IMG/VR virus record: IMGVR_UViG_3300022701_000122
Span: 62,001 to 126,000 of that record
Origin: a virus
DNA length: 64,000 bases
Reading direction: 5' to 3' (one strand)
Position 1 is the first letter of the stretch, and each line of letters starts with the position of its first letter. Positions 1,176 to 63,615 of this stretch are shown here, one piece after another. The notes under the pieces were generated by a model that saw nothing but the letters and a program-made list of their open reading frames with translations, searched no databases and was not told the origin of the DNA. The position numbers were made by a program, and so were the translations under genes.

Positions 1176-2093
1176 ATGAAAAAAATAAGTGATTTAAATA
1201 TATTGGTAGTTGGCGATATAATGTTAGATCATTATATCATTGGTAGTGTCGACAGAATATCTCCAGAAGCACCGATTCCAATTTTAAACACTAAATCTGA
1301 AGAATTGTTTCTTGGAGGATGTGGAAATGTTATAAGAAACTTATGTGAAATTGGAGCAAATGTAGAATGTATAACTGCTATTGGTGAAGATGATAATGGT
1401 GAAGTTGTTAAAACTTTACTTAATAACTTATATGTTGAATCTATTGTATTAAAATATGATAATTATATCACTACTACTAAGCAAAGATTTGTTTCAGATA
1501 ATTTTATTCAACTTTTGCGAGTAGACAATGAAGTTATAATAGATGAAGTAGATGAAACTAAATATTCAATAATAGAAAAATTAGATTTTAATAGATATGA
1601 TATCATAATTGTTAGTGATTATAATAAAGGGCTTATAAGTAAACCACTAATGGATCTTATTAAATTAAAATCAATTAAAGGTATAAAAAAGAATATAAAA
1701 ATATTAGTAGATCCAAAACCAATTCATTCCCATATGTATAATGGTGTTTTTCTAATTACCCCAAATGATGCAGAACTTCATGAATTTAGAACAATACATG
1801 GTACACCAAAAGTGAAGTATATTCTCAATACAAAAGGTGATAAAGGCATGGAGTTATTAGATAGTAGGGAATTTGTTTTAGATAAAATTCCATCAGAAAA
1901 AGTTCCAGTTTATAATGTATGTGGAGCAGGGGATACTGTTATATCAGTTATGGCAATATGTTTATCCCAAGATATAGATATAAAAAAATCATGTAGAATA
2001 GCAAATGAATGTGCACAATATGTCGTCAAACAACCAAAAACATCATCAGTTTCACGCGATGTTTTCACTCGCGCACACGACCATTTCATCTAA
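1176..2093 (+). CDS. PfkB-family sugar kinase, HldE/RfaE N-domain-like
   Basis: 305 residues, the size of the kinase half of HldE (D-glycero-beta-D-manno-heptose-7-phosphate kinase). The N-terminus ILVVGDIMLDHYIIGSV and the segment RISPEAPIPIL match the RfaE/HldE signature; the first PfkB glycine motif is seen in LFLGGCGNVIRNL, and the ATP/anion-hole motif with the catalytic Asp is NVCGAGDTVISVMA near the C-terminus. The cytidylyltransferase half of HldE is absent. Known HldE makes ADP-heptose precursors for LPS. In a phage this might alter host surface sugars or supply a sugar for a modification, which is inference. It is the last gene before a long non-coding stretch. Confidence 0.85.
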   Translation: MKKISDLNILVVGDIMLDHYIIGSVDRISPEAPIPILNTKSEELFLGGCGNVIRNLCEIGANVECITAIGEDDNGEVVKTLLNNLYVESIVLKYDNYITTTKQRFVSDNFIQLLRVDNEVIIDEVDETKYSIIEKLDFNRYDIIIVSDYNKGLISKPLMDLIKLKSIKGIKKNIKILVDPKPIHSHMYNGVFLITPNDAELHEFRTIHGTPKVKYILNTKGDKGMELLDSREFVLDKIPSEKVPVYNVCGAGDTVISVMAICLSQDIDIKKSCRIANECAQYVVKQPKTSSVSRDVFTRAHDHFI

Positions 2094-3527
2094 ATAGATT
2101 ATCTACTTTTAATCTAGCCACTAGCGATCATATCTAAATAGAATCACATCAGAATCTTAATCGTCGGGGCTATTCCGCTTAACAGAAGATTCTAATAAGA
2201 AAAAATTATGAATATATGGAGAGAGCGGATTTGTTTACTAAGTGATCAAGGACGGAACGGACTAAGATCACTTAGTAAACACTATATAAAAAGATTCTTG
2301 ATTAAGCCGTAGAAGATTCACACGACCGGTACTGATTCCATATGTTAAGTTATTATTTTACATATTAATATACGAAGTATATTCTATATAATTATTATAA
2401 CATATAATAGGTCTTGAAGCGTTTTAGAAACTGCGGTCTGTTTTGCAGTTTCTAAAACCGTTCGAGGGCCGGTTCTCGACCGATAGGGAGTCATCAATAA
2501 TCAAATTGATCTAAGAAGATTATATGTTCTATAAATTGAGCCATGAATGATTAAAACTGGTGATTATTTATTTATGATTATCTAAATTGATACACATTGA
2601 TGCAACATTAACTTATTAGATTAATTATTAAAATAAAATCAAGTTGATTCATATTGATAGTGAATTGATACAACATCTACATCCAACTCTTAATTTCTTA
2701 ATAACTTTCTATTAAGATCAATTTATCTCTTAAATAAGGTTAAATAACAAATTTTATAGTTCTTTAAGATTCTAATCATTTCTCCCTACCACTTCTCTAT
2801 TTATAAAAATCCGAAACACAATGATTCATTATTTCTGTTTTTTGGTAGGTTTTTAACTTTGCAGTTAACCTCTACTTACCCTAATTTGACTAATTTATTT
2901 ATCAATTCAAATGTTTAATATATCAAATATATAAATTTAATATATATCTATTGATAAATCATTTATTCAACTTTAAATTTAATTATTCATATTTTATTAA
3001 TCATTTAAATTTCTTTTATTAATAAGATATAAATTAATTAATTTAGATTTCTTTATCTTTATTTATTTTTCATTTATCAATTATTTTTTGGAATTTTGAA
3101 TCATTCATATATAATTCATGAATATATCAATATATGTCCGTTTCATTACGCCTGGGCTTCATGAAACGAGTAATAATATTTGACCTCAAATAGTTTTTCC
3201 ATTTGAATCTTAAAAGAATCTAATTAGATAAATATAGATTCTTTTTTCTTAGTATCTAAGAAAGAATTAATATTAGATTTTTAAAATCTAATATGAAAGA
3301 TTCTAAAATGTTTTAAATTAATCTATATAGATTCATTCTATAATCTAAGTAGATTAATAATGAACTGTATATGTTGTTAACATGGAATTAGTAGATTGTA
3401 CATGTGACATAATCATATTCTAAGAATATGTCCGAGCAATTTTTGGGTCAAGTCGGTACTTTTAAGAAGATATTTTGAAAATTGGAATAGCTGCTGCTAT
3501 GTGGACAAACGGTAGTCATAATGACCT
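2094..3527 (+). ncRNA. Long non-coding region rich in strong inverted repeats; candidate large structured RNA
   Basis: No credible gene is found on either strand. Perfect or near-perfect hairpins are frequent: 2233-2247 pairs with 2266-2280 (15 bp, 18-nt loop); 2421-2434 with 2445-2458 (14 bp); 2367-2373 with 2377-2383 around GAA; TCGAG 2462-2466 with 2475-2479; 2844-2880 (bulged stem); 3139-3146 with 3161-3168 (8 bp); 3245-3252 with 3256-3263; 3270-3281 with 3283-3294; 3414-3420 with 3424-3430. A long-range pairing GAATCT/TAATC (2153-2162) with GATTA...AGATTC (from 2300) would enclose the first hairpin. The part 2100-2500 is less AT-rich than the rest. The strand is assumed from neighbours. 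Alternatives are a replication origin (2880-3120 is almost pure A/T) or several small RNAs. Confidence 0.5.
3503..3519 (+). promoter_or_regulatory. GGACAAA motif (first of three near 3.5 kb)
   Basis: GGACAAAC followed by GGTAGTCAT. This is the weakest of the three matches here to the window-wide motif, because the downstream AAAT block is missing. It lies at the right end of the structured non-coding region. Confidence 0.3.
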
Positions 3528-3551
3528 ATGTATTGTTTATGGGTTGGAGGA

Positions 3552-3568
3552 GGACAAAATTTAAACAT
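3552..3568 (+). promoter_or_regulatory. GGACAAA motif (second of three near 3.5 kb)
   Basis: GGACAAAATTTAAACAT matches the window-wide pattern GGACAAA-N4-AA. It lies about 196 nt before the gene starting at 3748. It could be a promoter, but a purine-rich GGAGGAGG run overlaps it. Confidence 0.4.
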
Positions 3569-3649
3569 GTTAACTGGTTTAGAAATAAAATCTAAAAAGT
3601 TTAATAATTTATTAAATTTTTTAAAGTGTGGTACTGAAAAACTTATAGC

Positions 3650-3666
3650 GGACAAATTTATGATTA
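3650..3666 (+). promoter_or_regulatory. Candidate phage promoter upstream of 3748
   Basis: The sequence ATAGCGGACAAATTTATG carries the extended form ATAGC-GGACAAA also seen at 30608 and, as GTAGC, at 7728. It lies 98 nt before the start of the next large gene. The 75-codon frame that spans it (3528-3755) is not believed to be coding. Confidence 0.5.
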
Positions 3667-3747
3667 AAAGATTTCATTCTTTTATTAAATCTTATATGAT
3701 TTTATTTTATTTATTATTACATATTATTAAAAAGGGGATTAATACGT

Positions 3748-5847
3748 ATGAATAGAAATGGAGAAACATATTGGCTAAGTAAACCTTCATACACCTACTT
3801 AGATCCAAATCAATCTATATCATTAAATATAAGTTTTGCTTCATCTCTTAATGTTTCAGAGAAAGATGAGAATCAATATTTTAATTACTCAACAACTAAA
3901 CTAAGATTTACTCTTATTGATAATAGAACTGCTGGCAATCCAAGAATAAATATTGATCTCGAATATAATCATTTAACTTCATTATTATGTGATTTACATG
4001 AATTGAGCAGTAACAATTATAAAAATGCTTTTATGCAATCTTCTCAATTAAACATTTCAAGAGTATATTCTAAGAATAAAAAAGATCTGACATTCAGATT
4101 TATATTAATGGAGAATAAACCAGTTCTTGAATTAATAATTACTGATCCGATAGCAAATATGAATCAATGTAGAATATTGATGAATGGTAAATCTTTTAAA
4201 AATATGGTTAGATTTTTGAAAAATACTCGTGATGATTTTAGTAATATAGATACTAATATATCAAATATATTATTTAATCAATATCATAGTAAATCATTAT
4301 TGGGATCTATAAATGGAAGATTATTTAATATTGAAACATTGTTATCACGATTTTCTTCAGTTATGTCATCTAAAATAGATTCTATAAAGTCACAACCAGT
4401 TACTACTAATATGAAAATGTCTGATGAAAAAACAGATGAAATAATTAAGTCAACTGATGCGAATCATGTGTTTGAAGGTCCATTTAATGATGATGTTGAA
4501 TCAAATGATGATGATTATAATGGTGTAGATTATACACAAAAATTTACAGATATAAGTCAAGCATCTAATATGTTTAATAATGTTAATCTGGATGGAGAAA
4601 ATGAATTAGAAAAAATAGAACGTAAACACAATAATGATATGGAAAATAGAAGTAGCATACCATTTATATATAAAATATTTGATGGTGAATTGATGAATTT
4701 TAATTCATGGGTTATGTCATTTACATCAACTATTGAATCTTCAGACACTATAACATTCTCACCATTAGATGTAATATTCGATATATCAAATAATGCTCAG
4801 ATATTTAAAACATTCGATGATAAAAATTCTTATTATTTTTCTCAATATATAATGACATATCTCATTAAAACAAAAATAAAAGAATTTATAGAGCATAATG
4901 GTCAAATTGATATTCGTATTCCAATAATAAGATTTGATAATATTGTATATTCAAAAGAATCATATCTATACAATTTATGTATAGAGTTAACATCTACATT
5001 TTTGTTATATTCATTATTTATAAGAAGACTTGATGCATTAAATAATGTTCCAAATAAAAATAATTATAAGATAATTAATACTGCTATAAAGATTCTATTT
5101 AGTCCATTTATTTTTTCTCTCGATTATGAAAATGAATCAAAATTAATATTGGAGAATGTATTTGACCAATTTAAGAATTTTAATAAAAATGGGATAGTTA
5201 AATTATTTGAAGATAAGTATTCATCCATGACTGGGGGAAACTTAAATATAACTGAAGATTTATATTATGGTTATTCTAAATCATTTATAACTAACGTGAT
5301 TAATATGATTAAAACTGGTTATTCTATAAATAAAAATGATTTAATAAGATTGGCTTCAGATTATGATATACCATATTCAGATTTTTCAAAAATTAAAGAT
5401 ATTGAAAGTGTAAAGAGCAATATAGTTAATAATCTTATTAATAAGTATGATGAAGTTTCTAATATTGATGAAGATGACGATGTTCCATTTGATGCTCGAA
5501 ATGATTTAAATCAAACAATTAATACTTCAGATAAAGATGATAAATTAACATTATTTTTAGAATGTATTGAAAATATAAATGATGGTGATTTATATAATCA
5601 ATTTAAAACATTTAATACATTTAATGAAGTAGTTAATGATTTTATGAATCATGATATTCCTCCAGAAGTATTTAAGATAAGAAGAGCGATTGAAATGAAT
5701 AATAATTTATCAACCAAACTTGAAGTTTTTAAATTTGCTAAATTAATAAAAGAAGATTCTAACATTACAGAAGTATCTGACGGCAATGATAATTATAATG
5801 ATTTTGATGGTGTAGATCCTACTTCAGTCATAGATAATATAATGTAA
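3748..5847 (+). CDS. Unknown 699-residue protein
   Basis: The start follows the strong ribosome binding site AAAAGGGG. The N-terminal 160 or so residues are beta-rich (for example KLRFTLIDNRTAG and LTFRFILMENKPVLELIITD). The middle (about 200-300) is acidic and low-complexity (NDDVESNDDDYNGVD), probably a flexible linker, and the rest is mostly helical with an acidic patch near residue 575 (DEDDDVPFDARND). No catalytic motif was recognised. It is followed directly by a smaller gene with a similarly basic, beta-rich N-terminus, so the two may act together. Linker plus two folded parts would suit a DNA-associated or virion scaffold protein, but this is only a guess. Confidence 0.75.
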   Translation: MNRNGETYWLSKPSYTYLDPNQSISLNISFASSLNVSEKDENQYFNYSTTKLRFTLIDNRTAGNPRINIDLEYNHLTSLLCDLHELSSNNYKNAFMQSSQLNISRVYSKNKKDLTFRFILMENKPVLELIITDPIANMNQCRILMNGKSFKNMVRFLKNTRDDFSNIDTNISNILFNQYHSKSLLGSINGRLFNIETLLSRFSSVMSSKIDSIKSQPVTTNMKMSDEKTDEIIKSTDANHVFEGPFNDDVESNDDDYNGVDYTQKFTDISQASNMFNNVNLDGENELEKIERKHNNDMENRSSIPFIYKIFDGELMNFNSWVMSFTSTIESSDTITFSPLDVIFDISNNAQIFKTFDDKNSYYFSQYIMTYLIKTKIKEFIEHNGQIDIRIPIIRFDNIVYSKESYLYNLCIELTSTFLLYSLFIRRLDALNNVPNKNNYKIINTAIKILFSPFIFSLDYENESKLILENVFDQFKNFNKNGIVKLFEDKYSSMTGGNLNITEDLYYGYSKSFITNVINMIKTGYSINKNDLIRLASDYDIPYSDFSKIKDIESVKSNIVNNLINKYDEVSNIDEDDDVPFDARNDLNQTINTSDKDDKLTLFLECIENINDGDLYNQFKTFNTFNEVVNDFMNHDIPPEVFKIRRAIEMNNNLSTKLEVFKFAKLIKEDSNITEVSDGNDNYNDFDGVDPTSVIDNIM

Positions 5848-10805: not shown

Positions 10806-13800
10806 ACCAGTTTTTATTAATGCGCGAGATTTGGATGATGCTTGGCATCAATTATTATATCAATTATATAAAGAAGGGAGGAGATATTCAATTACATCTG
10901 GTTCACATGCTGGATCAGAGAGAGTTACTTTTGATTTTGCATCTGGTTTTATTAGGTATCCACAAAGTAGACCATTATCACCAAGAATGCCTGAAGGGGT
11001 ATCTTTACCGCCACCAACTACTGATGATGAAATAGATCAATATTTTGCTAATTATATAATGGATTCTAATCTTGAACCAAATGAAGAATATAGATATGCA
11101 ACATGGATAGTTGGAGATAATACAAATTATATTTATGGGGATGAGAATTTATGCAGCTATAATCAAACTGAATGGGTTATAAATCATTTTAAAACACATG
11201 GTATCGGAAATGAACATTGCTATATTACAATAGGTAATCCTGATTCAAATCGTGCATATGATAGACCATATCTTAAATGTAAAACATGTGGAAAGTTGCA
11301 TACGAAAAAAGCATCCAATAACGTATGTACAAATAATAAATGTAAAGCATATGGTACAGAATCTTTATTCATAAGTGAAGCGGATAGAGGAACTTCTCCA
11401 TGTTTACGTGGATTAGATTTTAGAATTATAGATGGGTATTTGACAACTAATGTAATATATCGATGTTTAGATGGAGATACACCAATAATCATAAAACATA
11501 ATTCAGTTTTAAAAAGAACTATTATAAAAGAAATATATCAATATATAAAATGTGGTGATTCAGTGGAAGTTATATCATTTGATAAAGATTATAATCAGAT
11601 ATGGTCTAATGTTACTGATTCACAAGTTTCATATAGATCAGATATCAGAGAAATTGAGATATATGGTGGTTATAAAATAAATGCATCAGAAAATCACAGA
11701 TTTCCAATATTAAAAAATGATAATATTGAATTAAAATATGTATATGATTTGGTTGATGGTGATGTGTTATTAGAGCCATATAGTATTGATTTTCAGTATA
11801 ATTCAGTAGATGTAATTGATTTATTTGAGATCTTTAAAGATAGTAATAAAGTTAAAGTTTGTAATTTAGAATTATCTGATTTTCATAGATTTAAAGAAGA
11901 TAACATTTCATATACTGATAGTAATAGAGATATAAAAATGATATCTATAAAACAAGCATATAATAGCCATTTATATAATGAATCTAATTTAACTATTCAT
12001 TGTTTTAAAATACAAACAAATAGAATGTTTAAAATTTCAAATGATTTTTCGTATTTTATGGGTTTATGGTGCGCAGATGGCTGGTATGGTAATAATTCAA
12101 GTAGTCTTAGAATAGCTATAAATTCCAAAAAGACTGATACTTTTAATAGGGTAATAAATTTTCTTAAGAATGAATTTGATTATACACCATCTATTGAACA
12201 TCGTGATGGATGTGAAGTTTTAAATATATCAATAGGTTTTCTTGTAAGAATGTATAAAAATTTAGGATTTAAACATGGAGCTAAATCGAAAAAAGTTCCA
12301 AATATTGTATTTTCACTTTCTAATGAACTTATAAATTCTTTTTTAGATGGGTGGATTTCTGGTGATACTTGTTGTTCAGCAAGTAATGATCTTATAATTG
12401 ATATGTCATATTTAAGTAAAATGGTGAATAAAAATGTTTCAATTTATAGAGAACCAGAACGACTTGTATATTTCAGAAAAGATAATAGATACATAAAAAG
12501 TAGTGGGTGTTTTAGTATATATAATATGAGTAAGAATCGTCCAAAATTAAGAAAAGGTGACTATATACTAAGAACTATAAAAAGTGTTAGTAATATACTT
12601 AATTTCGGAAATGTTTATGATATATCTGTTGATTCTGATTCTCATTTATTTTGTTGTGGATATATACCAATTATGACCCATAATTCTTGGGATGTATATT
12701 GTTTGAGTGATGATTCTGAAATATTAACAGATAATGGATGGCGCAATATAGATACTATATCTAAAGATGATAAAGCGGCTACATTAAATATAGATAAATG
12801 GGAAATGGAATTTTGTAATATTGATGAAATAATTAAATCTAATTATAGTGGTGATATGTATGAAATAGAAACTGCAAATATATCTCAATTAATAACTCCA
12901 AACCATAGAATGTTACATAAATATGTTACACATTCTGGAAATAAACGAATTATTAAAGATTATCAATATACTAAGGCAGATGAATTAATACCAAAAGATG
13001 GATCACTTATACCAGTTTCAGCACCATATAAAGAAGGAACATGGGAATTGGGTTATGTAAAGGCATCTCTAATTGGTTGGATTTTAACTGATTCACATTA
13101 TTTAGAAAAATGTGATGGTGTGTATATTTATCAAAGTGCTAAGAAGTACCATGTTGATATAAGAGAATTATTAACTGAATCTGGTATGAACTTTACTGAA
13201 AAATTTGAATCAAAGACAATGTATAAAATTGCAGATAAAGAGTATCCAGATGGTTTACTTGTTGAAATGTATAACTTTTATATTTCTGCTAAATCTACTA
13301 AATGGATAAAAGAAATAATTCCAAATAGAAGACCAACAGAAGAATTATTAAATCTTACTTATGATGATAGAATGTCAATATTTATTGCAATGATAAAAGG
13401 TGATGGTAGTTTTAAACATACAGCATATTGCTTTTATTCACAAGATAAAGAAAAAAGAGATTGGTTTCAACGATTAGCATTATCTTTGGGATTTCAAGCG
13501 AAAATAAATGATGAATCTGGATGTGTTAATGTATCTAATAGGAAAGAAGCATCATTTAATAGAACTTATTTTGTTGATGGTAAATTGCCTATTCGTAAAT
13601 ATGATGGTAGGATATGGTGTATACGAAATAGAAATACAAATTTTTTTATGAGAAGAAATGATAAAATATCTGTTACTGGAAATTCTGGATTTCCATGTAA
13701 CATGGGCGGTTTTACATTGTTGAATGAATATATTGCCGGGGAACTTGATATTAACTCTGGACCACTTTCATTTTCATGTAAATCTCTCCATGCATATTCA

Positions 13801-29088: not shown

Positions 29089-30249
29089 ATGTTAATACAC
29101 CGAGGGTACAAGTATAGGATTTTACCAACCAAAGAGCAAGAGAAATCCTTGCTTCAATGTGGTGGCAATTCCAGATTTTTGTGGAATTATGCCCTTAAAA
29201 CAAATCAAGATTATTATAAAGAAACAGGCAAATTTAAATTCTACCATGAATTAGCTGTTTCATTACCAAAACTCAAAGAGGAATATCCCTTTCTTAAAGA
29301 ATCATTTTCACAATCTTTACAAATGGTTTTACGACAATTTGATAGAACGTTGAAAGATTTTTTTAAGAAAGAGAAAGGATTTCCATCTTTCAAAAAGAAA
29401 ATGTTGTTGAACGATAGTTTTACCTGCCCACAAAAATGGAGATTGGGTAAAGGATTTGTTTTTATTCCTAAAATTGGGGAAGTAAAATGGGTGAAGCACA
29501 GATCCATGAAAGGCAAGCCTAAATCAATTACAATTTCACAAGATGGTAATAAATGGTTTTGTTCTGTTTTATGCGAATACACAGTGCCAGATAGAGCAAA
29601 AAAATGTGATAGTGTTGTTGGTTGCGATGTAGGTTTAAAAGAGTTTGCAACATTGTCTGATGGAACTGTCATAAGCAACTCCAAACATACTAAAAAATAT
29701 GAAAATAAGTTGACGAAAGAACAAAGGAAACTAAGCAAAAAACAAAAGGGGAGTAAAAACAGGTTTAAACAAAGACTTAAAGTTAGAAAGATTTACAACA
29801 AAATAAGAGATACACGTAAAGATTTTCTACACAAAACTTCTAATTCGATAGCCAAGAATTACGATGGGATATTCGTAGAAGATTTAAACATTAAAGGGAT
29901 GATGAAAAATCATTGCTTAGCTAAATCAATCGGTGATGTTTCATGGTCGGAGTTCAATAGACAACTTGAATACAAATGTAAATGGAATTTTAAGTATTAT
30001 GTCAAAATTGACCGATTTGCTCCATCGAGCAAAACATGTTCAAACTGTGACTGTATTCAAGAAATGCCTTTGAGCAAGAGAATCTTTAATTGCCCAAATT
30101 GTGGAATTTCTATAGACAGGGATTTAAACGCATCTCTAAATATTAGAAATATAGGACTTAATACGCTGGGGCACAGCGGAATTTACGCTTGTGGAGATAG
30201 TTTGTTAGAACTATCGTTGAAGCAAGAAAAAGAATGCTTAGTGAACTAA
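29089..30249 (+). CDS. tnpB: TnpB, RNA-guided nuclease (Cas12 ancestor family)
   Basis: 386 residues, typical for TnpB. The N-terminal helix-turn-helix-like start MLIHRGYKYRILPTKEQ; the RuvC acids in GCDVGLKEFATL, FVEDLNIKGMM and SIDRDLNASLNI; and the zinc ribbon CSNC...CPNC between the second and third are all present, so the nuclease looks active. By family knowledge TnpB uses an RNA made from the element's right end (omega/reRNA) and cuts targets next to the transposon-adjacent motif, which helps retain the element. It lies 3 bases after tnpA. Confidence 0.95.
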   Translation: MLIHRGYKYRILPTKEQEKSLLQCGGNSRFLWNYALKTNQDYYKETGKFKFYHELAVSLPKLKEEYPFLKESFSQSLQMVLRQFDRTLKDFFKKEKGFPSFKKKMLLNDSFTCPQKWRLGKGFVFIPKIGEVKWVKHRSMKGKPKSITISQDGNKWFCSVLCEYTVPDRAKKCDSVVGCDVGLKEFATLSDGTVISNSKHTKKYENKLTKEQRKLSKKQKGSKNRFKQRLKVRKIYNKIRDTRKDFLHKTSNSIAKNYDGIFVEDLNIKGMMKNHCLAKSIGDVSWSEFNRQLEYKCKWNFKYYVKIDRFAPSSKTCSNCDCIQEMPLSKRIFNCPNCGISIDRDLNASLNIRNIGLNTLGHSGIYACGDSLLELSLKQEKECLVN

Positions 30250-34208: not shown

Positions 34209-37200
34209 ATGATGGATAGTTTGCGTGTCGAAAATAGTGATAGTACTAAGATTGAAGAAGATGTTAAGTTTGAAGAAAAAGATCCCTACGAGGGGATAAC
34301 TTTTAAAAAAGTACAATCAACCATAAAAAATAAAAACGGAAAAGTTATATTTAATGAAGAAGTTGAATTTCCAGATTATTTTGATGAAAATGATATAAAT
34401 ATTGTTGCGAGTAAATATCTTTGTAATTCAGCAAAAGCAAAAGAGACTTCTCTTAAACAAATGGTTGAACGAATTGGCGATACTATAACAGAAATGGGAG
34501 ATAAACAGGGATATTTTGATGTTGGTTTAATTGATAAAGAAGAATTTAGATACTGGCTAAAATATTATCAAATTAGACAGTATTGTGCATTTAATAGTCC
34601 AGTATATTTTAATGTTGGACTTGAAGATCCGGCTCAGGTATCTGCGTGTTTTATATTAGACATTCAAGACGATATGGATTCTATTTCTGGAATAACCCAA
34701 TTAGAAAGTAGAATTTTTAAATGGGGAAGTGGTTCTGGAATTAATATGAGTAATCTAAGATCACGAAAAGAAAAAGTTCGTGGTGGTGGACATGCATGTT
34801 TAACTGATGATACAGTTGTATATATAAATGAAGAAAAACGCACAACTATAAAGAATTTATGGAAAATGAAAGTTGATAATATTGATTTTCCAGATATTTT
34901 ATCTGCTAAAGATGCAAAACGAATTATTCCGAATAGAATAATTGATATTGTTTATAATGGTCATCAAGTGGTTTATAAAATGGATACATCACTTGGATAC
35001 ACAATAAAAGCAACTATGAATCATAGATTCTTGTCTAAACAAGATGGATGGCAACCATTGGAATACTTTAATGAAGGAGATTGTATAGCAGTATCTGATG
35101 GCGACAAATTAAATTATGATACTATTATAGATATAAATAAATTTGGAAAAGAACACGTATATGATCTTCAAATGGAATCTCCTTTTCATAATTTTATAGC
35201 AAATGGTTTATTATCACATAATAGTGGTCCAACTTCATTTATGAAAACTCATGATACAAATGCTGGTGTAATAAGAAGTGGTGGAACATTACGGAGATCA
35301 GCAAAATTAGTGTGTCTTGATGATTGGCATCCAGATATTCTTCATTTTATAAATTGTAAGAAAAGAGAAGAAGAAAAATTAAGAATATTAATGAATTCTG
35401 GATTTGAACCAGAAGAAGGTTATGATCCATCAGACGATGCTTATTATCAAAATACAAATATATCTGTTCGATTATCTGATGAATTTATGGAGGCAGTGGA
35501 AAATGATGATAAATGGAGTACTAAATATGTATTAACAGGTGAAACTTGTGATACTTATAATGCAAAAGACATTCTAAAAGAAATATCAGAAACTGCATGG
35601 GAGACGGCTGATCCTGGAATTCTATTTTCTGGAGCAATGAATAAATGGAATACTACCAAGAAAGTTGGTGAAATAACAACCTCTAACCCGTGTAATCCTG
35701 ATTGGATTCCAGTTTTAACACCAAATGGTTATAAGAAATTTAGAGATATTAACAATAAAGTATTTGTTGGTGGGAAAGAAAATGAATGTTCAGATCTTAT
35801 TTTTACTGGTACTAAAAAAGTATATGAGATTGTTCTTAAAAGTGGATTAAGATTATACGCTACAGATAATCATAAAATAAATACTGAATATGGAGATGTA
35901 GAAGTTAAAGATCTTACTGTTAATAGTAAAGTAAGAGTTGATTATACAAAAATTCCATATGAATTTGATAAAGAAGAGTTTGAAAAAGGTTTATTGTGTG
36001 GGTTTTTATTTGCAGATGGGACTATAGATAAACATTGTAAATATTTTTGTTTTTCATTGGGAATAGAAGAATTTGATTTTGAACATGTATTTCTAGAACT
36101 TATACATAAATATACTGATAGTGATAAAACATTTAAACCACATGGACAAAAACCAGATACATGTAGATTATTAGGAGTTAATAAAAAGAAAATAGTTGAA
36201 AATTTTTTTAATAATATATTTAAAGCTAAAAATAAGAATGAATTTGATCTTTTTGATCATTCTATTTCTTTTCAAAAAGGTTTTATTCAATCAATGATAT
36301 CGTGTGATGGTCACGTTGTTAATAGTGGATATACTAAACATGTTGGCATTACGCAATCTGGTAAAAAAGGATATAATATATTAAGTCAGATTCAGTTATC
36401 TCTTGCATCTATGGGCATTTATTGTTATTTCGGAATACATAATCATGAAATGTCTGGAATACGTGATGGGAAAGAATTTCATTATAAAACTGTATATAAA
36501 CTTGAAATAAATGATGTTTGGGAATTTGATAAAGAATTTGAATTATATAGTACAAATAAACAAAAAAGAGTTAAAGAGATAGTTTCTATACCAAAATCTC
36601 ACCCAACAAGAATAACTAATCTGAAAACTTTTCAACATATAAAAGAAATAAATGACTATTCTGAGGAAGAAGTTTATGATATTCAAGTTCCAGATATTCA
36701 TTATTTTGTAGCCAGTGGTGTTGTCGTTCATAATTGCGGTGAGTATTTATCTCCTATAATAGAAGAAAATGGTGGTGCTGCTTGTAATCTTGCGTCTTGT
36801 AATTTCTTGAAATTTTTTAAATTTAAACAAGTTGGAGAATCATTTGAAGTTAATTTTGATTTTGAAAATTTTGAGAGATTAATAAAAATAATGATAATTG
36901 CTCAAGATATAATAATTAATGCTGGTAGTTATCCAAATAATAAGATTAGGAATAATGCTGTTAAACTTAGACCACTTGGGTTTGGATTTTCTAATCTTGG
37001 TTCCACTTTGATGAATATGTGTTTACCATATGATAGTGATGAGGGAAGATTATTAGCAAGTTTATTAACATCCTTACTGACATCAACTGCATTTTGTATA
37101 AGTAAAGATATGGGTCAGAAACTTGGATCATTTGAATTATTTAAAGAAAATGAAGAATCTTTTCGTGATGTGATGGAAATACATAGTGATAAAAATGATA

Positions 37201-57330: not shown

Positions 57331-58257
57331 ATGATAAATGTAATAAATGTAAATAAGTTTATTCGTGAAGGAAAATTGAAGGGTCCGATAACGAGTCCTC
57401 AAATATTCATGGGTAAATCTTATACACCACATCCAGAAGGGTTACATAGCGAAGAAATATTTGGATTAGACGGTTCACCGGAAAGAAGAAATTCGATGTC
57501 GTGGATTGATTTGAACTGTAATGTAATACATCCAGTATTTTATGATATTGTATCTAAACAAATAGAGAAAAAAATTGTTAAACTAATATCTAATGAAGAA
57601 ATGTTTACTATAAATGAAGAGACAGGTGAACTTGTTCAAGACGAAGAAGGGGAATTAACTGGATTTTCAAGTTTTGTTAAAAATATAGATAAAATAAAAT
57701 TTAGAAGAGCAGAAGAAGGATCAAAAGGTAATAGAAATAAGGTAGTTAGTGTTTTAGAAAAAAATATTAAGAATAATACATTTTTTATAAATAAATTGAT
57801 AGTTATTGCACCAGACTATAGACCAATATTTTATTCAGAATCGGATGATCGACCAACAATCGATGAGTTAAATGATATATATAAAAGTATTATAATATTA
57901 TCTAATCAATTAAAAAGTGTATCTGGACCATTATTTGACATACTTAGCTATAAAATGCAGATGTATATGAAAGAATTGTTTGAATGGGTTAAATCGAAAG
58001 TGAGTAAAAAACACGGTATAATAAGAAGAATGATGCTTGGTAAACGAGTAGATTTTTCTGCTCGATCTGTTATATCACCAAATCCAAATCTTAAACTTGG
58101 TGAAGTTGGAATACCACTTAATACGGCGTGTGGTTTATTTGAACCAAATTTGATATATGGTATAGTAAATTCTCCGTATTCCAAAGATATACCAGATGAA
58201 TTTCATGAAGAAGTTAAATCATTTTTGGGTAAAGAATTACTTCCTGATTTAACGTAA
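57331..58257 (+). CDS. RNA polymerase beta' subunit, N-terminal part (split gene)
   Basis: 308 residues. HSEEIFGLDGSPERR matches the start of beta' (S-x-x-I-F-G near the zipper), and KHGIIRRMMLGKRVDFSARSVISPNPNL then LKLGEVGIPLNTA matches the lid/rudder-switch segment (L-G-K-R-V-D-(Y/F)-S-x-R-S-V-I). The zinc-ribbon between them is shortened. The chain stops soon after this motif, and the conserved segments that follow in cellular beta' continue in the gene at 60847, so the subunit is naturally divided. It would be part of a phage-coded multisubunit RNA polymerase. Confidence 0.93.
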   Translation: MINVINVNKFIREGKLKGPITSPQIFMGKSYTPHPEGLHSEEIFGLDGSPERRNSMSWIDLNCNVIHPVFYDIVSKQIEKKIVKLISNEEMFTINEETGELVQDEEGELTGFSSFVKNIDKIKFRRAEEGSKGNRNKVVSVLEKNIKNNTFFINKLIVIAPDYRPIFYSESDDRPTIDELNDIYKSIIILSNQLKSVSGPLFDILSYKMQMYMKELFEWVKSKVSKKHGIIRRMMLGKRVDFSARSVISPNPNLKLGEVGIPLNTACGLFEPNLIYGIVNSPYSKDIPDEFHEEVKSFLGKELLPDLT

Positions 58258-58276: not shown

Positions 58277-58957
58277 ATGTATATATCAGAACAGTATTTA
58301 AATGAATTATCTTATTTCGTAACGCCATACGTTAAAAAATTAATAAATAATATCCCAACTGTTACTAAAAAAGATTTCATTGGCAATGTTGAGCCAGGAG
58401 ATATTGTTCTTGGATTTTCGCCAAGAGAACTGAAAACGGTAAGAACATCTAAGATAATTGCATCTGTTCAACGATCACCATATACTACTTCAAAAATTGT
58501 TGCTGATAATAAGACTATTATTGGATATGGAGTTAAGGCAGTCAATACAGTTGATGAAAATTTTCTTAGAACATATCAATTAAGAAATTTATTAATTGAA
58601 CGACATGAATTATGTTTAATTAGAATAAATGATGCTACACTTACACAAAAAAGAAAAGCTATAGATTTTTGTTTAAATAGACTTGGACTTGAATATAATT
58701 CTTCTGATTTATTGAAAACTATATGGAATGTTTTTACACGAAAGAAACTATTTCCATTTTTTAGAAATGAACCATTGGAGAAAAAAGAAGTAGATAATTT
58801 ACAAAGACCACTTTTTTGTTCTTCTATTATTGCATTGGGTTATTGGTATGCCGGATATAAACATAAATTTAATGGTAAGAGTCCATACGAACTTTGGCCT
58901 ATTGATTTTTTAATTGATGATAATACAACTGGTGTTTGTAGAGTGGAGCAATTATAA
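58277..58957 (+). CDS. YiiX/YaeF-like permuted papain-like hydrolase with leader motif
   Basis: 226 residues. The N-terminus MYISEQYLNEL is a motif shared with two neighbours. VEPGDIVLGFSP is the usual opening strand-turn of NlpC/P60-type and YiiX domains; RPLFCSSIIALGYWYAG holds the likely catalytic Cys, and in the middle ELCLIRINDATLTQKRKAIDFC matches the helix preceding it. YELWPIDFLID fits the 'S-P-x-x-L' ending. Such enzymes hydrolyse amide bonds in peptidoglycan or proteins. It sits between the two RNA polymerase beta' halves. Confidence 0.65.
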   Translation: MYISEQYLNELSYFVTPYVKKLINNIPTVTKKDFIGNVEPGDIVLGFSPRELKTVRTSKIIASVQRSPYTTSKIVADNKTIIGYGVKAVNTVDENFLRTYQLRNLLIERHELCLIRINDATLTQKRKAIDFCLNRLGLEYNSSDLLKTIWNVFTRKKLFPFFRNEPLEKKEVDNLQRPLFCSSIIALGYWYAGYKHKFNGKSPYELWPIDFLIDDNTTGVCRVEQL

Positions 58958-58976
58958 AAAATAAAGGATAATCGTA

Positions 58977-59264
58977 ATGATGGATTTTTTTAAAGAACGT
59001 CACATTTATGATAAGTTAGTAGATGATAACGTATTAGTATGGGAAAGTCATGAAGATGATGTAGATTATTTTGTAAAATGGACGAGAGTAAGTGATAATG
59101 AACACAGAATAAGAGAACATGTGCCAGTTAATAGATGTAATACATTTGGTCAATCAAGATTAAGTTTAAATTTTTTAAAAAAAGGAAAATATCAAATAGA
59201 TATAACTGCATATAGTGAAAAAGGTCTTCAGAGTGATAAGTCATCTATTTTATTGTCAATATAA
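58977..59264 (+). CDS. Small Fn3/Ig-like protein, 95 residues
   Basis: Behind AAAGGATAAT; Met is doubled at the start. Beta-rich with VDYFVKWTRVSDNEH and YQIDITAYSEKGLQSDKSSI, the look of a fibronectin type III-like fold (W, then 'Y-x-(V/I)-x-A-x-x-x-x-G-x-x-S'). Function unknown. The next gene also encodes an Fn3-like protein, exported in that case. Confidence 0.55.
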   Translation: MMDFFKERHIYDKLVDDNVLVWESHEDDVDYFVKWTRVSDNEHRIREHVPVNRCNTFGQSRLSLNFLKKGKYQIDITAYSEKGLQSDKSSILLSI

Positions 59265-59323
59265 CAAACATTTTTATTAGTTAATGTCAATAGTATAAAC
59301 ACTGGTAAGAAAGGATTAAAGAA

Positions 59324-59728
59324 ATGAAGAAATTAAATTTTACATTAATTTTATTGCCGATTATTGTTGTTTGTTTTATGGTTTCCCCATTATTTGCTGC
59401 AACTGTAACATTAACATGGAATCAACCAAATGAATCGGAAGAAAATATTACGGAATGGGAAGTGTTTTGGGGATACGAGGGTAGAGGTGGAAACGGTGAA
59501 GAGTTTGTATACCAATTTAATCCAACCACAAATTCAGAATTACTTGTGACTGAGAAAACATGCGTTATAGAAAATGTAGATAATGGAAAACAGACATTTT
59601 ATGCAGTTAGAGCCAAATCTGGAGAAGTAAGAAGTTTTTATTCAGAAGAAGTATCAACTACTATTCCATTATCAAGTCCATCTGGAATTCAGATTAATAT
59701 ATCGATAACGATTACAACAAATCCATAA
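59324..59728 (+). CDS. Secreted Fn3-like protein with Sec signal peptide
   Basis: 134 residues behind GAAAGGATT. The N-terminus MKKLNFTLILLPIIVVCFMV then SPLFAA is a clear signal peptide with an Ala-x-Ala-like cleavage site near residue 25. The mature part is a single fibronectin type III-like domain (VTLTWNQPNESEENITEWEV; FYAVRAKSGEVRSFYSEEVS). Exported to the periplasm or surface, it could act in superinfection exclusion, adhesion or lysis timing; this is inference. Such exported proteins are unusual between RNA polymerase genes. Confidence 0.7.
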   Translation: MKKLNFTLILLPIIVVCFMVSPLFAATVTLTWNQPNESEENITEWEVFWGYEGRGGNGEEFVYQFNPTTNSELLVTEKTCVIENVDNGKQTFYAVRAKSGEVRSFYSEEVSTTIPLSSPSGIQINISITITTNP

Positions 59729-59769
59729 ATAATTAATAGTAATTATATAATAAATAAAATGGGTGATTT

Positions 59770-60273
59770 ATGTTTTTATCAGAAGAATGCATCAATGAAA
59801 AAATAAATTTAAGTGAAGGAAAATTTTGGGAATGGTTAAAGAAAGTATTCTATGATCATAATCCAAGACATCCACGAATGGTAGAATTAAATCAAGATTA
59901 TTATGAATATATTTGGCATTGTAAAAGAGATCATCGAGATACAACGATGAAAGCAAATATTCCAATTGGTAATGATACTGAAATAAAAATGGATTACGAT
60001 GAAGAAAATATTCAAAAGACTGCATGTGTTCTTGAAGCACGTATTGAATATTTAGAAGGAATAATAGCTGTTATAGAGGAGGAAGGTATAGAGGAAGTTT
60101 GTCAATATAATAAATATAAATCGGAATGTCACAATGTATCACGTAATCTTCTTAGAGCATCAAAAATACGATTAAAACATGATAAAAAATATCTGCAAGG
60201 AATAAAATCTGGAAGGGTAAAACCAAGACGAGATTTTAAAGCAGAATTAGATAATGCCAAATATATAATTTAA
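59770..60273 (+). CDS. Unknown 167-residue protein with SEQ-type leader motif
   Basis: Begins MFLSEECINEK, related to the starts of the genes at 58277 and 60291. The body is helical, charged, with scattered His/Cys (WHCKRDHRDTTMK; CQYNKYKSECHNVS) but no regular metal site. C-terminal part is basic (KSGRVKPRRDFKAEL). No family is recognised. Confidence 0.6.
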   Translation: MFLSEECINEKINLSEGKFWEWLKKVFYDHNPRHPRMVELNQDYYEYIWHCKRDHRDTTMKANIPIGNDTEIKMDYDEENIQKTACVLEARIEYLEGIIAVIEEEGIEEVCQYNKYKSECHNVSRNLLRASKIRLKHDKKYLQGIKSGRVKPRRDFKAELDNAKYII

Positions 60274-60290
60274 AATGAGAATAATAAAAA

Positions 60291-60656
60291 ATGTTTATAT
60301 CAGAACAATACTTAACTGAAATGTCTGTTACTGTAAAATATAAACGAAAATTATTTGATGCTATTGTTTGCCCAAATAGTGGCTTATATTTTTTAGCTGA
60401 TTTTAATGATTGGTCTATAGAATGGGCTGAATATGTTGCTCTTGAAGAAGATATAGATAAAATAACTGAAGATCATTGGAAAGTAATTCATTTTATTCGA
60501 AGTTATTACTCTAAATATAATAGACCACCACGTTTAAGAACAATATTTCGTAAAACTGGATTTAAGTTAATGCATATTTATGAACTATTCCCAAATGGTC
60601 CTGGTCGTGGTGCTGGACGAATGGCTGGACTCCCATATAAACAACTTCCGATATAA
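60291..60656 (+). CDS. DsrC/TusE-like protein lacking the conserved cysteines
   Basis: 121 residues. The core FLADFNDWSIEWAEYVALEE then ITEDHWKVIHFIRSYYSKYN, RPPRLRTIF, and YELFPNGPGRGAGRMAGLP follows DsrC/TusE closely. In the family the C-terminus carries a penultimate Cys, and DsrC also has a Cys about ten residues earlier; here these places read GRGAGRMAG and GLPYKQLPI, so both are missing. It begins with an additional MFISEQYLTEM segment. Thus it is probably not a sulfur carrier but a diverged structural or regulatory homologue (inference). A terminator follows. Confidence 0.85.
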   Translation: MFISEQYLTEMSVTVKYKRKLFDAIVCPNSGLYFLADFNDWSIEWAEYVALEEDIDKITEDHWKVIHFIRSYYSKYNRPPRLRTIFRKTGFKLMHIYELFPNGPGRGAGRMAGLPYKQLPI

Positions 60657-60764: not shown

Positions 60765-60846
60765 ATATATTAATATAATCTAAATAAAATAAGATAATAA
60801 TATATATAGTTACAACAACGCTATTTAAACAATGAGAGGTCTAAAT

Positions 60847-63615
60847 ATGGCGGTTGAGAAAATAACAACGGAAGAAGCAAGAAACATATTGTTAATGATG
60901 AGTCAAGGGTATAAAGTTCCAAAAATTGTAAAAGATGTAATATTTAAAGTTGCTAAGACGGAGATAGAAGATAAAGGGAGAGTCGTAATTATAAAACGCG
61001 ACCCAAATGTGGGATCACGTCGTATGCAGGGTATGTATGCTAAAATAGTTGATGGTAGTACTATGGAAATACATCCTGCTATCGTCGGTGGGTTTGGCGC
61101 AGATTTTGATGGTGACACCGTTAGGTGCAGACTTCGATGCACTTGTAAATTTGAGAAAAACGAAACAGGACATACTGTGAATCACGAATGTCATATAGGA
61201 GAAATTTTATCTGTTACTAATGCATTTGAGTTTTACAGTAAAGAAGAAAAAAGAAATGGTATATTGGTATCGAAATATAAGCCTAAAAAAGGTTATACTG
61301 TAAAAATAAAAGCCATTGATATTGAAACTGGCAATGTTGAGATGAAAAATGTTTCTGAATATTCTATCCACGAATTTATAAAATTATACAAGATAGAAGA
61401 TACAAAAGATAGATTTGAAACGATTCATGCTTCTTCAGATCATTCATTAATCGTTTATGACGATAATGATAAACAGATTAAGAAAATTTCTCCTATAGAC
61501 TTGTTGGAAAATCTTAATAATAGATATTTAATCAAAGAAAATAATAATACTAAATCAAATCATTTAAATGATATATCTATACAAAAACTGCAAGAAATGG
61601 GATTAGAATTAATACCAGTTTCAGAAGTTAATATAGAGTATGATCCAGATGAAACAACTGGATATGATTTAACAGTAGATGATTTCTATACATTTGCAAC
61701 TCATGATGGTTTATTTATTCAAGATACAATGGCTGTTTATCATCCAATTTCAAATGAAGCCCAAAAAGAAGTCAAAGATAAAATGATTTCTACATATGGT
61801 ATAGAAGGATTAAATAAACCAAATTTTGAGTTATCAAAAGAAATGTTGACTGGTATTTTCACTCTTACATATGATGAGAATAAAAAATCTCAAATCAAAA
61901 CTATAAAAAAAGCAGATGAAGCGAATACGTTACCCATTGATCAACGTGTTAAATTCAATGATATAGAAACAACTGCTGGTAGAGTTGTATTTAATAGTAA
62001 TTTACCAAAATATATTCCATTTGTTAATGAACCAATTGATAAAAAGAAATTAAATGGAATACTTGCAGGTATATTAGAAAAAAGTATTCAAGACAATGCC
62101 ACTACAATTGATAAATTAATGAGAATTGGATTTTTTTATGCTACTGTATACCCAAAAACTATGTCTATCGATATGATGAAATTAAATCCAAAACTTATTA
62201 AACTTAAACAAAAATTAGCCAATGAAGAAGATATTGCCAGACAAATGGATATTCAGAATGAAATGGAATCTGAAATGTTGAAATATCTTGAAAAAAATCA
62301 TAGCGATATTTTTTATATGGTTAAAAGTGGTGGAGCTAAAGGGAGTAATCAGATACGTCAATTAATGGTTGCGAAGGGATTAACATCAGACCCAATGGGA
62401 AATGTTATACCAGCAATTTCTACCAGTATTTCTGATGGTTATTCTCCAGAAGAATATTTTAAAGTGTCTGCTGCTGGAAGGAAGGGTATAATTGATAGAG
62501 CATTAAACACCGCTAACGGTGGATATGCTTATAGAAAATTTATCTTCTTAATGGCGAATGTTGAAGCAGATATAAATATTGGTGATTGTGATACTCCAAG
62601 AACATTAGATATCAAACTAACTAATGAATTGATGAAAAGAATGCCTGGAAGATATGTATATAATAATAGTAATAAGATAATTCCCATTAATGAAAAAATG
62701 ATTGGAAATGTTATAAAATTAAGATCTCCAATATTCTGTAGATCACAAAAGATTTGTAGAATTTGTTATGGTGATTTATTGAAACAATTGAAGAGTAAAA
62801 ATGTAGGTATTCTGGCTAGTATGACCTGCACCAGCCTTTCAGAGCGCATAATGAAAGCATTTCATCTTGGTGGTGCTGTTATATTAAATAGAGTTGATAT
62901 TATAAATGAAATTATGGATAATTTAAATGATGATATGTTGCAAAAAGTTAAATCATTAGTTCATCAGAAGGAAGATGACTTATTCAATGATTCTGAATTT
63001 GCAACTATAAGAATAGATAAAAATATATATAATTCAACTATACCATCAAATAGAATAGTCGAAGAACATGGTTTTATAAAATTAGTAGTTGGTCATTTTA
63101 CATTATCTTTAGATGGGTTTGAAATAAATGTTGAAATAGAACAACCAGTTAAAATATATATTCCAGAAGAACGAGAAGATAATGATAATATAATATCTTG
63201 TATGTACGCAAAAGGAGATAAATTATTTAGAATTGAATCAATAAGAGAAGATTTTTCAAAATTGGCTCAGAATCTTGATGGGTTGGTTGCTGGAAAGTCT
63301 CCGTGGTCAAGTATTCCCGGTATATATAAGAAATTTTATAAACAGTTAAGTGTTGTTGGATCATGGGATTCAGTTCATTTAGAAACTATTATTTCAAATG
63401 TATTGAGAGCAAAGCGTAATCCACAAAAACCAGCAAGATTGGTTGAACCATTTGATCCAGATTTTTATTCAATTAAGAGATTGCCAGGAATGATGTCATG
63501 GCCCCTTGGCGTAGCCCTCGAAAATTTTTCTGTGGGGTTGCAAAGTGGGCTATGTGAGGATCGTGCTCCATCATCTCAAATTGAAAAAGTATTATTTGGA
63601 GAACCATTGTATTAA
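60847..63615 (+). CDS. RNA polymerase beta' subunit, C-terminal part, with an intein
   Basis: 922 residues from the ATG behind GAGAGGT (60847); 719 after splicing. The extein contains RDPNVGSRRMQGMYAKIV then IHPAIVGGFGADFDGD, the Mg2+-binding loop of the catalytic site, continuing TMAVYHPISNEAQKEV. Later motifs include SVSAAGRKGIIDRALNT-like text (KVSAAGRKGIIDRALNTANG), the trigger-loop region, and a C-terminal CRICYGD zinc-binding cysteine set. It forms the active site with the part encoded at 57331. Whether the two chains assemble with a beta subunit cannot be seen here, because beta is not in the window. Confidence 0.93.
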   Translation: MAVEKITTEEARNILLMMSQGYKVPKIVKDVIFKVAKTEIEDKGRVVIIKRDPNVGSRRMQGMYAKIVDGSTMEIHPAIVGGFGADFDGDTVRCRLRCTCKFEKNETGHTVNHECHIGEILSVTNAFEFYSKEEKRNGILVSKYKPKKGYTVKIKAIDIETGNVEMKNVSEYSIHEFIKLYKIEDTKDRFETIHASSDHSLIVYDDNDKQIKKISPIDLLENLNNRYLIKENNNTKSNHLNDISIQKLQEMGLELIPVSEVNIEYDPDETTGYDLTVDDFYTFATHDGLFIQDTMAVYHPISNEAQKEVKDKMISTYGIEGLNKPNFELSKEMLTGIFTLTYDENKKSQIKTIKKADEANTLPIDQRVKFNDIETTAGRVVFNSNLPKYIPFVNEPIDKKKLNGILAGILEKSIQDNATTIDKLMRIGFFYATVYPKTMSIDMMKLNPKLIKLKQKLANEEDIARQMDIQNEMESEMLKYLEKNHSDIFYMVKSGGAKGSNQIRQLMVAKGLTSDPMGNVIPAISTSISDGYSPEEYFKVSAAGRKGIIDRALNTANGGYAYRKFIFLMANVEADINIGDCDTPRTLDIKLTNELMKRMPGRYVYNNSNKIIPINEKMIGNVIKLRSPIFCRSQKICRICYGDLLKQLKSKNVGILASMTCTSLSERIMKAFHLGGAVILNRVDIINEIMDNLNDDMLQKVKSLVHQKEDDLFNDSEFATIRIDKNIYNSTIPSNRIVEEHGFIKLVVGHFTLSLDGFEINVEIEQPVKIYIPEEREDNDNIISCMYAKGDKLFRIESIREDFSKLAQNLDGLVAGKSPWSSIPGIYKKFYKQLSVVGSWDSVHLETIISNVLRAKRNPQKPARLVEPFDPDFYSIKRLPGMMSWPLGVALENFSVGLQSGLCEDRAPSSQIEKVLFGEPLY
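61117..61725 (+). other. Intein in the RNAP catalytic loop (203 aa, non-standard ends)
   Basis: Inserted exactly between GADFDGD and TMAVYH. The intein would begin TVRCRLRCTCKF and end TFATHDGLFIQD, followed by Thr. Block B is probably HASSDHSLIVYD (S-x-x-H instead of T-x-x-H); block F/G is GYDLTVDDFYTFATHDGLF. The usual first Cys/Ser and last His-Asn are absent: first residue Thr, last residues Gln-Asp. A cysteine/histidine group close to the start (RCRLRCTC...HECH) may bind metal. No LAGLIDADG repeats are seen, so it is a mini-intein type. Confidence 0.75.

What the first reader, a model, noticed from the sequence alone, without database searches (positions are those of the whole stretch)
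61117..61725. RNA polymerase intein in the DFDGD loop with unusual splice residues
The insertion is exact, after the Mg2+-binding DFDGD of beta', and the continuation TMAVYHPISNEAQ restores the family sequence. But the intein starts with Thr and ends Gln-Asp before Thr, not Cys/Ser...His-Asn. That implies either a variant splicing chemistry or different borders. The nearby Cys/His group may coordinate metal.
Basis: partly seen in the sequence, partly recalled or inferred. Interest (0 to 1): 0.75.

Follow-up and report, generated by a model that had tools for sequence, protein, structure and literature searches.

The report
Phage RNA-polymerase intein at catalytic aspartates
A self-splicing protein insert sits right after the catalytic aspartates of a phage RNA polymerase and belongs to a scattered phage family in which the usual histidine-asparagine ending is replaced by one ending in aspartate, which points to an unusual splicing chemistry.

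Summary
A 203-residue in-frame insert (61117-61725) follows the DFDGD of a phage RNA-polymerase beta' gene, starts with Thr and ends Gln-Asp before Thr. It is a real intein: Pfam Intein_splicing E=1e-6 (below the curated cut-off), and an AlphaFold model that matches solved inteins end to end. Scans of IMG/VR gave ten relatives at the same site in other phages, seven of them split. The borders hold: position 1 is Cys, Ser or Thr in 10 of 10 members where it can be read (Thr only here), +1 is Thr, Ser or Cys in 11 of 11, and the last intein residue is Asp in 11 of 11. The three residues that usually drive asparagine cyclisation (block F His, penultimate His, terminal Asn) are absent in 11 of 11, while six of six other inteins in this phage begin with Cys and end in Asn. 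So the odd residues are a family trait of this site, not decay. Intein and extein relationships disagree, as expected of a mobile intein. A conserved metal site is not supported. Best reading: a class-1-like splicing intein with Asp-terminated, oxoester-leaning chemistry. Splicing itself is untested.

The parts
57331..58257 (+). RNA polymerase beta' N-terminal fragment (separate gene)
   Evidence: Pfam RNA_pol_Rpb1_2 E=7e-10 and Rpb1_1; PHROG 2986 RNA polymerase
60832..63615 (+). RNA polymerase beta' C-terminal fragment, interrupted by the intein
   Evidence: Pfam Rpb1_2, _3, _4, _5 around the insert; open frame of 927 aa
61102..61116 (+). DFDGD, Mg2+-binding catalytic loop; its last Asp is the -1 residue
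   Evidence: direct reading; -1 Asp in 10 of 10 members with a readable N-junction
61117..61725 (+). intein, 203 aa, contiguous, no endonuclease domain
61117..61119 (+). Thr1, presumed N-terminal nucleophile
   Evidence: aligns with Ser1 (6) or Cys1 (3) of nine relatives; model residue 16, where solved inteins start at model residue 15 or 16
61369..61371 (+). His85, in the place of the NX-motif histidine of Ser1 inteins (assignment inferred)
   Evidence: His in 10 of 10 members with this stretch; motif described in PMC10189870
61432..61443 (+). block B: Ser106 (in the place of Thr) and His109
   Evidence: Ser 11 of 11 and His 11 of 11
61666..61668 (+). block F Asp184 (F:4)
   Evidence: Asp 11 of 11
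61687..61689 (+). Tyr191 in the place of the block F histidine (F:13)
   Evidence: His 0 of 11
61720..61725 (+). Gln202-Asp203, in the place of penultimate His and terminal Asn
   Evidence: penultimate Q 8, Y 1, F 1, W 1; terminal Asp 11 of 11
61726..61728 (+). Thr+1, first residue of the C-extein
   Evidence: T 7, S 2, C 2 of 11

Best explanation
The insert is a splicing intein that cuts itself out of the phage beta' subunit and restores the catalytic loop DFDGD-TMAV. Proposed steps, all inferred from sequence: (1) Thr1, helped by block B His109, block F Asp184 and probably His85, attacks the carbonyl of the -1 Asp to form an oxoester; (2) Thr+1 takes over the N-extein in a branched oxoester; (3) the terminal Asp203, without the usual block F His, penultimate His and Asn, cleaves the C-terminal bond, either by its own carboxylate through a cyclic anhydride or by assisted hydrolysis; (4) an O-N shift makes the normal peptide bond. 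The enzyme should be inactive until this is done, because the insert sits at the metal site. The window copy is a contiguous form without endonuclease, from a family of inteins at this one site that are mostly split, often with an endonuclease-like gene between the halves.
For: Exact in-frame insertion at an invariant catalytic motif with intact exteins. Intein_splicing E=1e-6. AlphaFold model (pLDDT 68.5, pTM 0.69): the first 46 Foldseek matches are inteins or other Hint domains, best 9hth, the cysteine-less Aes123 PolB1 intein, E=3e-6; RadA intein Z 11.2, 154 aligned, 3.2 A, model 15-218 on chain 1-172, so Thr1 (16) is within one residue of its start and Asp203 (218) on its end. Ten relatives at the same site; counting the window: -1 Asp 10/10; position 1 S 6, C 3, T 1; block B His 11/11; F:4 Asp 11/11; terminal Asp 11/11; +1 T/S/C 11/11. 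pN/pS 0.43-0.69 in ten comparisons against 0.99-1.39 in 200 codon shuffles of one partner. Extein closest to G008 (49%, against 38% for G009) but intein closest to G009 (50%, against 32% for G008). Split relatives need trans-splicing to make one beta' chain. Only one beta' is found in the window's own record. Terminal Asp is accepted as splicing-competent (PMC4031507, passages).
Against: No splicing data. Thr1 is unique in the family (1 of 10) and could be an error or an inactivating change; one base would make it Ser. The Pfam score is under the curated cut-off and the profile match starts at position 22, so block A is atypical. NCBIfam gave no match for the window insert. The model has weak stretches at both ends (residues 1-16 and 218-231 under 50), so active-site geometry cannot be judged. 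The presumed NX histidine is preceded by Lys or Arg in only 2 of 10 members, while the paper calls this invariable in its set.
Confidence: 0.72

Rival explanations
1. The family splices, but Thr1 is not a nucleophile: Thr+1 attacks the N-terminal splice junction directly, as Cys+1 does in class 2 inteins.
For: Thr is a poor nucleophile; in class 2, block B His and F:4 Asp serve a direct attack (PMC4031507, passages), and both are present here.
Against: Position 1 is Ser, Cys or Thr in 10 of 10 members, which is not expected if it were free to drift. All class 2 inteins known to that review are KlbA orthologues with Ala1 and Ser at G:6.
Confidence: 0.1
2. The window copy is a decayed or non-splicing intein-derived domain: Ser1 mutated to Thr, and the phage uses the host polymerase or an RNAP not held in the record.
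For: Thr1 is unique here; the C-terminal helpers are missing; the record may be incomplete.
Against: The C-terminal residues are shared by the whole family and so are not decay. All other catalytic positions are kept, the frame is open, pN/pS is 0.43-0.69, and the exteins are intact. Only one beta' is found in the record.
Confidence: 0.13
3. The borders are shifted by one: DFDG | DT...FIQ | DTMAV, so the intein starts with Asp and ends with Gln.
For: The Asp at both junctions makes the spliced product the same either way; Gln-terminated inteins exist (PMC4031507).
Against: It would put Asp at position 1 and at +1, for which no chemistry is known to me, and Tyr, Phe or Trp at the end in three relatives.
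Confidence: 0.03
4. Imprecise insertion: the second, out-of-frame copy of GADFD at 61121-61139 marks a duplication, and the ancestral first residue is Cys10.
For: 19 bases with 4 mismatches, all at third codon positions; the stretch from position 1 to the conserved His-Ile is 8 residues longer than in G009 or G012.
Against: Similar short near-repeats occur elsewhere (327 of 6,519,075 windows). Positions 4, 6 and 7 from Thr1 match G008 (S-S-Y-C-F-L-R), and the model makes one longer hairpin (strands 23-28 and 35-40), which fits Thr1 as start.
Confidence: 0.02

Closest known systems
Cysteine-less Ser1 inteins of PolB (Aes123 PolB1 / CL intein, PolB16 OarG)
   Same: Inserted directly after an Asp at -1 (PMC13014065 section 7; PolB16 flank SGDTD, PMC10189870 section 6); hydroxyl residue at position 1; a His in the place of the NX motif; Aes123 PolB1 is the best Foldseek match
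   Different: Those end in Asn and sit in DNA polymerase B; ours ends in Asp, lacks the block F and penultimate His, has Thr1, and sits in RNA polymerase
Inteins with C-terminal Asp or Gln (Amitai, Dassa and Pietrokovski 2004; seen here only as cited in PMC4031507 and PMC1635734)
   Same: terminal Asp in place of Asn
   Different: Here block F His and penultimate His are missing too and position 1 can be Thr; whether any of the 2004 set shares this was not checked
Split inteins of fractured phage genes (Dassa et al. 2009; recalled, paper not held)
   Same: seven of ten relatives are split; endonuclease-like ORFs lie between the halves in four (G007 by eye; G009, G010, G012 with Pfam DUF7487)
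   Different: The window copy is contiguous; the host gene and site (beta' DFDGD) were not found in print in the searches made here
RNA polymerase inteins of eukaryotes (RPA2, RPB2, RPC2; PMC1635734, passages)
   Same: inteins in a conserved region of a multisubunit RNA polymerase
   Different: those are in the second-largest subunit, not at the catalytic aspartates of the largest

Membership tests
Intein (Hint splicing domain) | in-frame insert that interrupts a conserved host protein with intact exteins | tested here: met
Intein (Hint splicing domain) | Hint fold / intein profile | tested here: met
   PF14890 E=1e-6, under the curated cut-off; model aligns end to end with RadA, TvoVMA, Aes123 and other inteins
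Intein (Hint splicing domain) | autocatalytic excision and extein ligation | not testable with these tools
   needs expression and mass spectrometry
[quoted passage not shown]
   T1/T+1 in the window; 10 of 10 and 11 of 11 in the family; definition from PMC5222942 and PMC4031507
Class 1 intein | block B Thr..His and block F Asp | tested here: met
   His 11/11, F:4 Asp 11/11; Thr replaced by Ser 11/11
Class 1 intein | penultimate His and terminal Asn (usual, not defining: Asp, Gln and Glu are accepted in PMC4031507) | tested here: not met
   0 of 11 have either
Class 2 intein (KlbA type) | no nucleophile at position 1 (Ala1), Ser at G:6 | tested here: not met
   T/S/C at 1; Q/Y/F/W at G:6
Class 3 intein | Cys at F:4 | tested here: not met
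   Asp at F:4 in 11 of 11
Cysteine-less Ser1 inteins (NX motif) | His in the NX motif, preceded by Lys or Arg | tested here: inconclusive
   His 10/10 by position, Lys/Arg before it 2/10; equivalence with His68 of PolB16 inferred, not shown on a structure
Bacterial intein-like (BIL) domain | no conserved nucleophile at +1 (recalled) | tested here: not met
   T, S or C at +1 in 11 of 11
Split intein | two separately encoded halves | tested here: not met
   window copy is one open frame; met in 7 of 10 relatives

The most novel reading that the evidence does not exclude
This is a natural intein that splices through two threonine esters and breaks its C-terminal bond with an aspartate, with none of the block F His, penultimate His and terminal Asn that other inteins lean on. 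The -1 residue, which cannot vary because it is a catalytic Asp of RNA polymerase, would have selected for the slower hydroxyl nucleophile and may itself take part in catalysis. The family, split or whole, would act as an on-switch placed in the metal site of phage RNA polymerases.
Probability: 0.42. Interest if true: 0.8.

Novelty: new variant of a known kind. Interest (0 to 1): 0.6.

Why it matters
It defines an intein family at the active site of multisubunit RNA polymerase in large phages, with an invariant terminal Asp and loss of all three C-terminal helpers, so it offers a direct test of how the C-terminal cleavage step works without them. Thr1 would add a nucleophile that a recent review does not list among position-1 residues (PMC11766414). 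Its split members with Ser1 and Ser or Thr at +1 would be new candidate cysteine-independent ligation tools. It also shows that broken-looking phage beta' genes can be split inteins. That may bear on the interrupted DxDxD motifs reported without explanation in zeta crAss-like phages (PMC7886860, passages), but those were not examined here.

Tried and rejected
Close-relative scans of viral contigs with the insert or with the C-extein gave nothing; tblastn of the insert against named phages gave one weak match, E=0.5, taken as chance; phmmer against the PDB found nothing up to E=10; a genome-contig scan found no relative. The ADFDGDC scan gave 18 loci, of which two are inteins; the QDTMAV scan gave 11, of which one is an intein.

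Bias in the family counts: G001 was found by its QDTMAV end, and the A1 and A4 scans used patterns that hold the terminal Asp as one of two options. G002, G003, G009, G010, G011 and G012 were found (or found again) through the N-terminal half or ADFDGDC, without reference to the C-terminus; all six end in Asp. The three first found by A4 are G006, G007 and G008; G008 ends in LYD and so matched through the other pattern.

Cys10 as the original first residue, and a conserved metal site, were considered and rejected (see rivals). The intein tree has weak support (48 and under for the window's placement), so only pairwise scores are used for the discordance. The pN/pS comparison includes about 20 flanking extein codons, and pS is saturated for G002 and G003. 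A second AlphaFold job, on a relative without alignment, gave pLDDT 31.8 and was discarded. In G012 the extein just after the splice site is deleted or frameshifted, so it counts for the intein only.

Literature: ten full-text searches of an open-licence library were answered; none listed an intein at the beta' DFDGD site of a phage. Subscription papers are mostly missing from it, so this is no proof of absence.

Full report
What is there. The window is bases 62001-126000 of a 182,757-base virus record. Its RNA polymerase beta' gene is in two pieces: an N-terminal gene at 57331-58257 and a C-terminal gene at 60832-63615. Inside the second, right after the metal-binding DFDGD, lies a 203-residue in-frame insert, 61117-61725, after which TMAVYHPISNEAQ resumes the beta' sequence. 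Intein-free phage beta' proteins read straight through this site. The record shows one beta' only.

It is an intein. Pfam Intein_splicing matches it at E=1e-6, under the curated cut-off and without the first 21 profile positions, so its start is atypical. An AlphaFold model built on the window sequence and 14 pieces of relatives (pLDDT 68.5, pTM 0.69) is matched by Foldseek first to inteins and other Hint domains, best to the cysteine-less Aes123 PolB1 split intein (E=3e-6), and by VIA-align to the RadA intein over model residues 15-218 (Z 11.2, 154 aligned, 3.2 A); Thr1 is model residue 16 and Asp203 is 218. The ends of the insert therefore coincide with the ends of solved inteins, within one residue at the N-terminus.

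Relatives. Pattern and profile scans of IMG/VR gave ten other phage records with an intein at the same site: G001, G002, G003 and G006 to G012. Three are contiguous with an endonuclease domain (G002 and G003 with Pfam LAGLIDADG_3; G008 by eye). Seven are split: the N-half ends in a stop, and the C-half starts at its own Met. Between the halves lie endonuclease-like genes in G009, G010 and G012 (Pfam DUF7487, with a sub-threshold HNH_3 in G012) and, by eye, in G007; in G006 the halves lie about 78 kb apart. G008 is the nearest relative of the window's phage by beta' and by gene order, and has the same break between the two beta' genes.

The unusual residues are a family trait. On the alignment, counting the window: the residue before the intein is Asp in 10 of 10 with a readable N-junction; position 1 is Ser in 6, Cys in 3 and Thr in 1 (the window); block B His 11 of 11, with Ser in place of its Thr in 11 of 11; block F Asp 11 of 11; the block F His is replaced by Tyr, Phe, Trp or Lys in 11 of 11; the penultimate residue is Gln in 8, Tyr, Phe and Trp in one each; the last residue is Asp in 11 of 11; +1 is Thr in 7, Ser in 2, Cys in 2. 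By contrast all six other inteins read in this phage (two each in ribonucleotide reductase, thymidylate synthase and a portal-like ORF) begin with Cys and end in Asn, five of six with His before it, and the second-site beta' inteins of G002 and G008 end in His-Asn. So the phage's inteins in general are ordinary, and this site's are not. How members were found could favour the terminal Asp; six were found without reference to it and all six have it (see Tried and rejected).

Mobility and selection. Over the first 430 C-extein residues the window is nearest to G008 (49% identity, 412 bits; G009 38%, 276 bits), but its intein is nearest to G009 (50%, 194 bits; G008 32%, 105 bits). The extein tree joins window and G008 at 100% support; the intein tree is poorly resolved. 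This discordance is what a horizontally moving intein gives. Differences from relatives favour synonymous sites (pN/pS 0.43-0.69 in ten comparisons; 0.99-1.39 in 200 codon shuffles of one partner), so the frame is under constraint.

How it most likely works (inferred). A class-1 route with oxoesters: Thr1 and then Thr+1 carry the N-extein, and Asp203 takes the part of Asn. Literature read here allows Thr1 in the class definition (PMC5222942, passages) and terminal Asp (PMC4031507, passages), while a recent review lists only Cys and Ser at position 1 (PMC11766414, passages). The best structural match, the CL/Aes123 PolB1 intein, also follows an Asp; its side chain hydrogen-bonds the block B His in the crystal structure, though replacing that Asp changed rates in no simple way (PMC13014065, section 7). 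A histidine whose loss stops or nearly stops splicing in three Ser1 inteins (motif NX, PMC10189870, section 9) has a counterpart by position in 10 of 10 members here. I suggest that the invariant catalytic Asp before the intein favours the hydroxyl nucleophile, because a thioester on Asp is prone to premature cleavage (known from intein practice, recalled, not looked up). Which residue replaces the missing histidines in step 3 is open.

What is not shown. No splicing was or could be observed. Thr1 rests on one record, and one base separates it from Ser. The model is too weak at the ends to judge geometry.

Verdict. A real intein in a known fold, in a family at the RNA-polymerase catalytic site with a coherent, non-canonical set of splice residues that I did not find described in ten searches of an open-licence library. 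New variant of a known kind.

Noticed in passing
window 61093-61111 and 61121-61139: Near-repeat of 19 bases (4 mismatches, all at third codon positions of the first copy's frame); the second copy encodes GADFD in the +1 frame inside the intein. Chance or relic of a duplication; such repeats are not rare in the window.
   Followed up: partly
window 58277-60656: About 2.5 kb with several small ORFs separates the two beta' genes; the same break point exists in L202 (G008) with a single 198-aa ORF in between.
   Followed up: partly
window 11455-12687, 12691-13686, 34791-35225, 35679-36737; L010 (minus strand) 1671-3122 and 3294-4664 of the reverse complement: Six further inteins in the same phage, two per gene in thymidylate synthase, ribonucleotide reductase and a portal-like ORF; Cys1 and terminal Asn in all six.
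   Followed up: yes
L202 8252-9448, L068 7182-8300, L074 ORF from 7522: Second inteins in beta' near the trigger-helix motif (FHLGG/FHTGG, name recalled), with His-Asn ends.
   Followed up: partly
L209 / L198 (G006): Halves of a split beta' intein about 78 kb apart and on opposite strands of one contig.
   Followed up: no
L072 1493-1700: C-extein just after QD|T is deleted or frameshifted in G012: pseudogene, other splicing, or assembly fault.
   Followed up: no
L067 750-3455 (G001); G009:C1:33182; G012:C1:46434: A second beta' gene in phages that carry the intein in the other copy; the one in L067 (G001) reads through the site intein-free.
   Followed up: no
window 29089-30249: ORF that looks like an IS605-type OrfB/TnpB by eye.
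   Followed up: no
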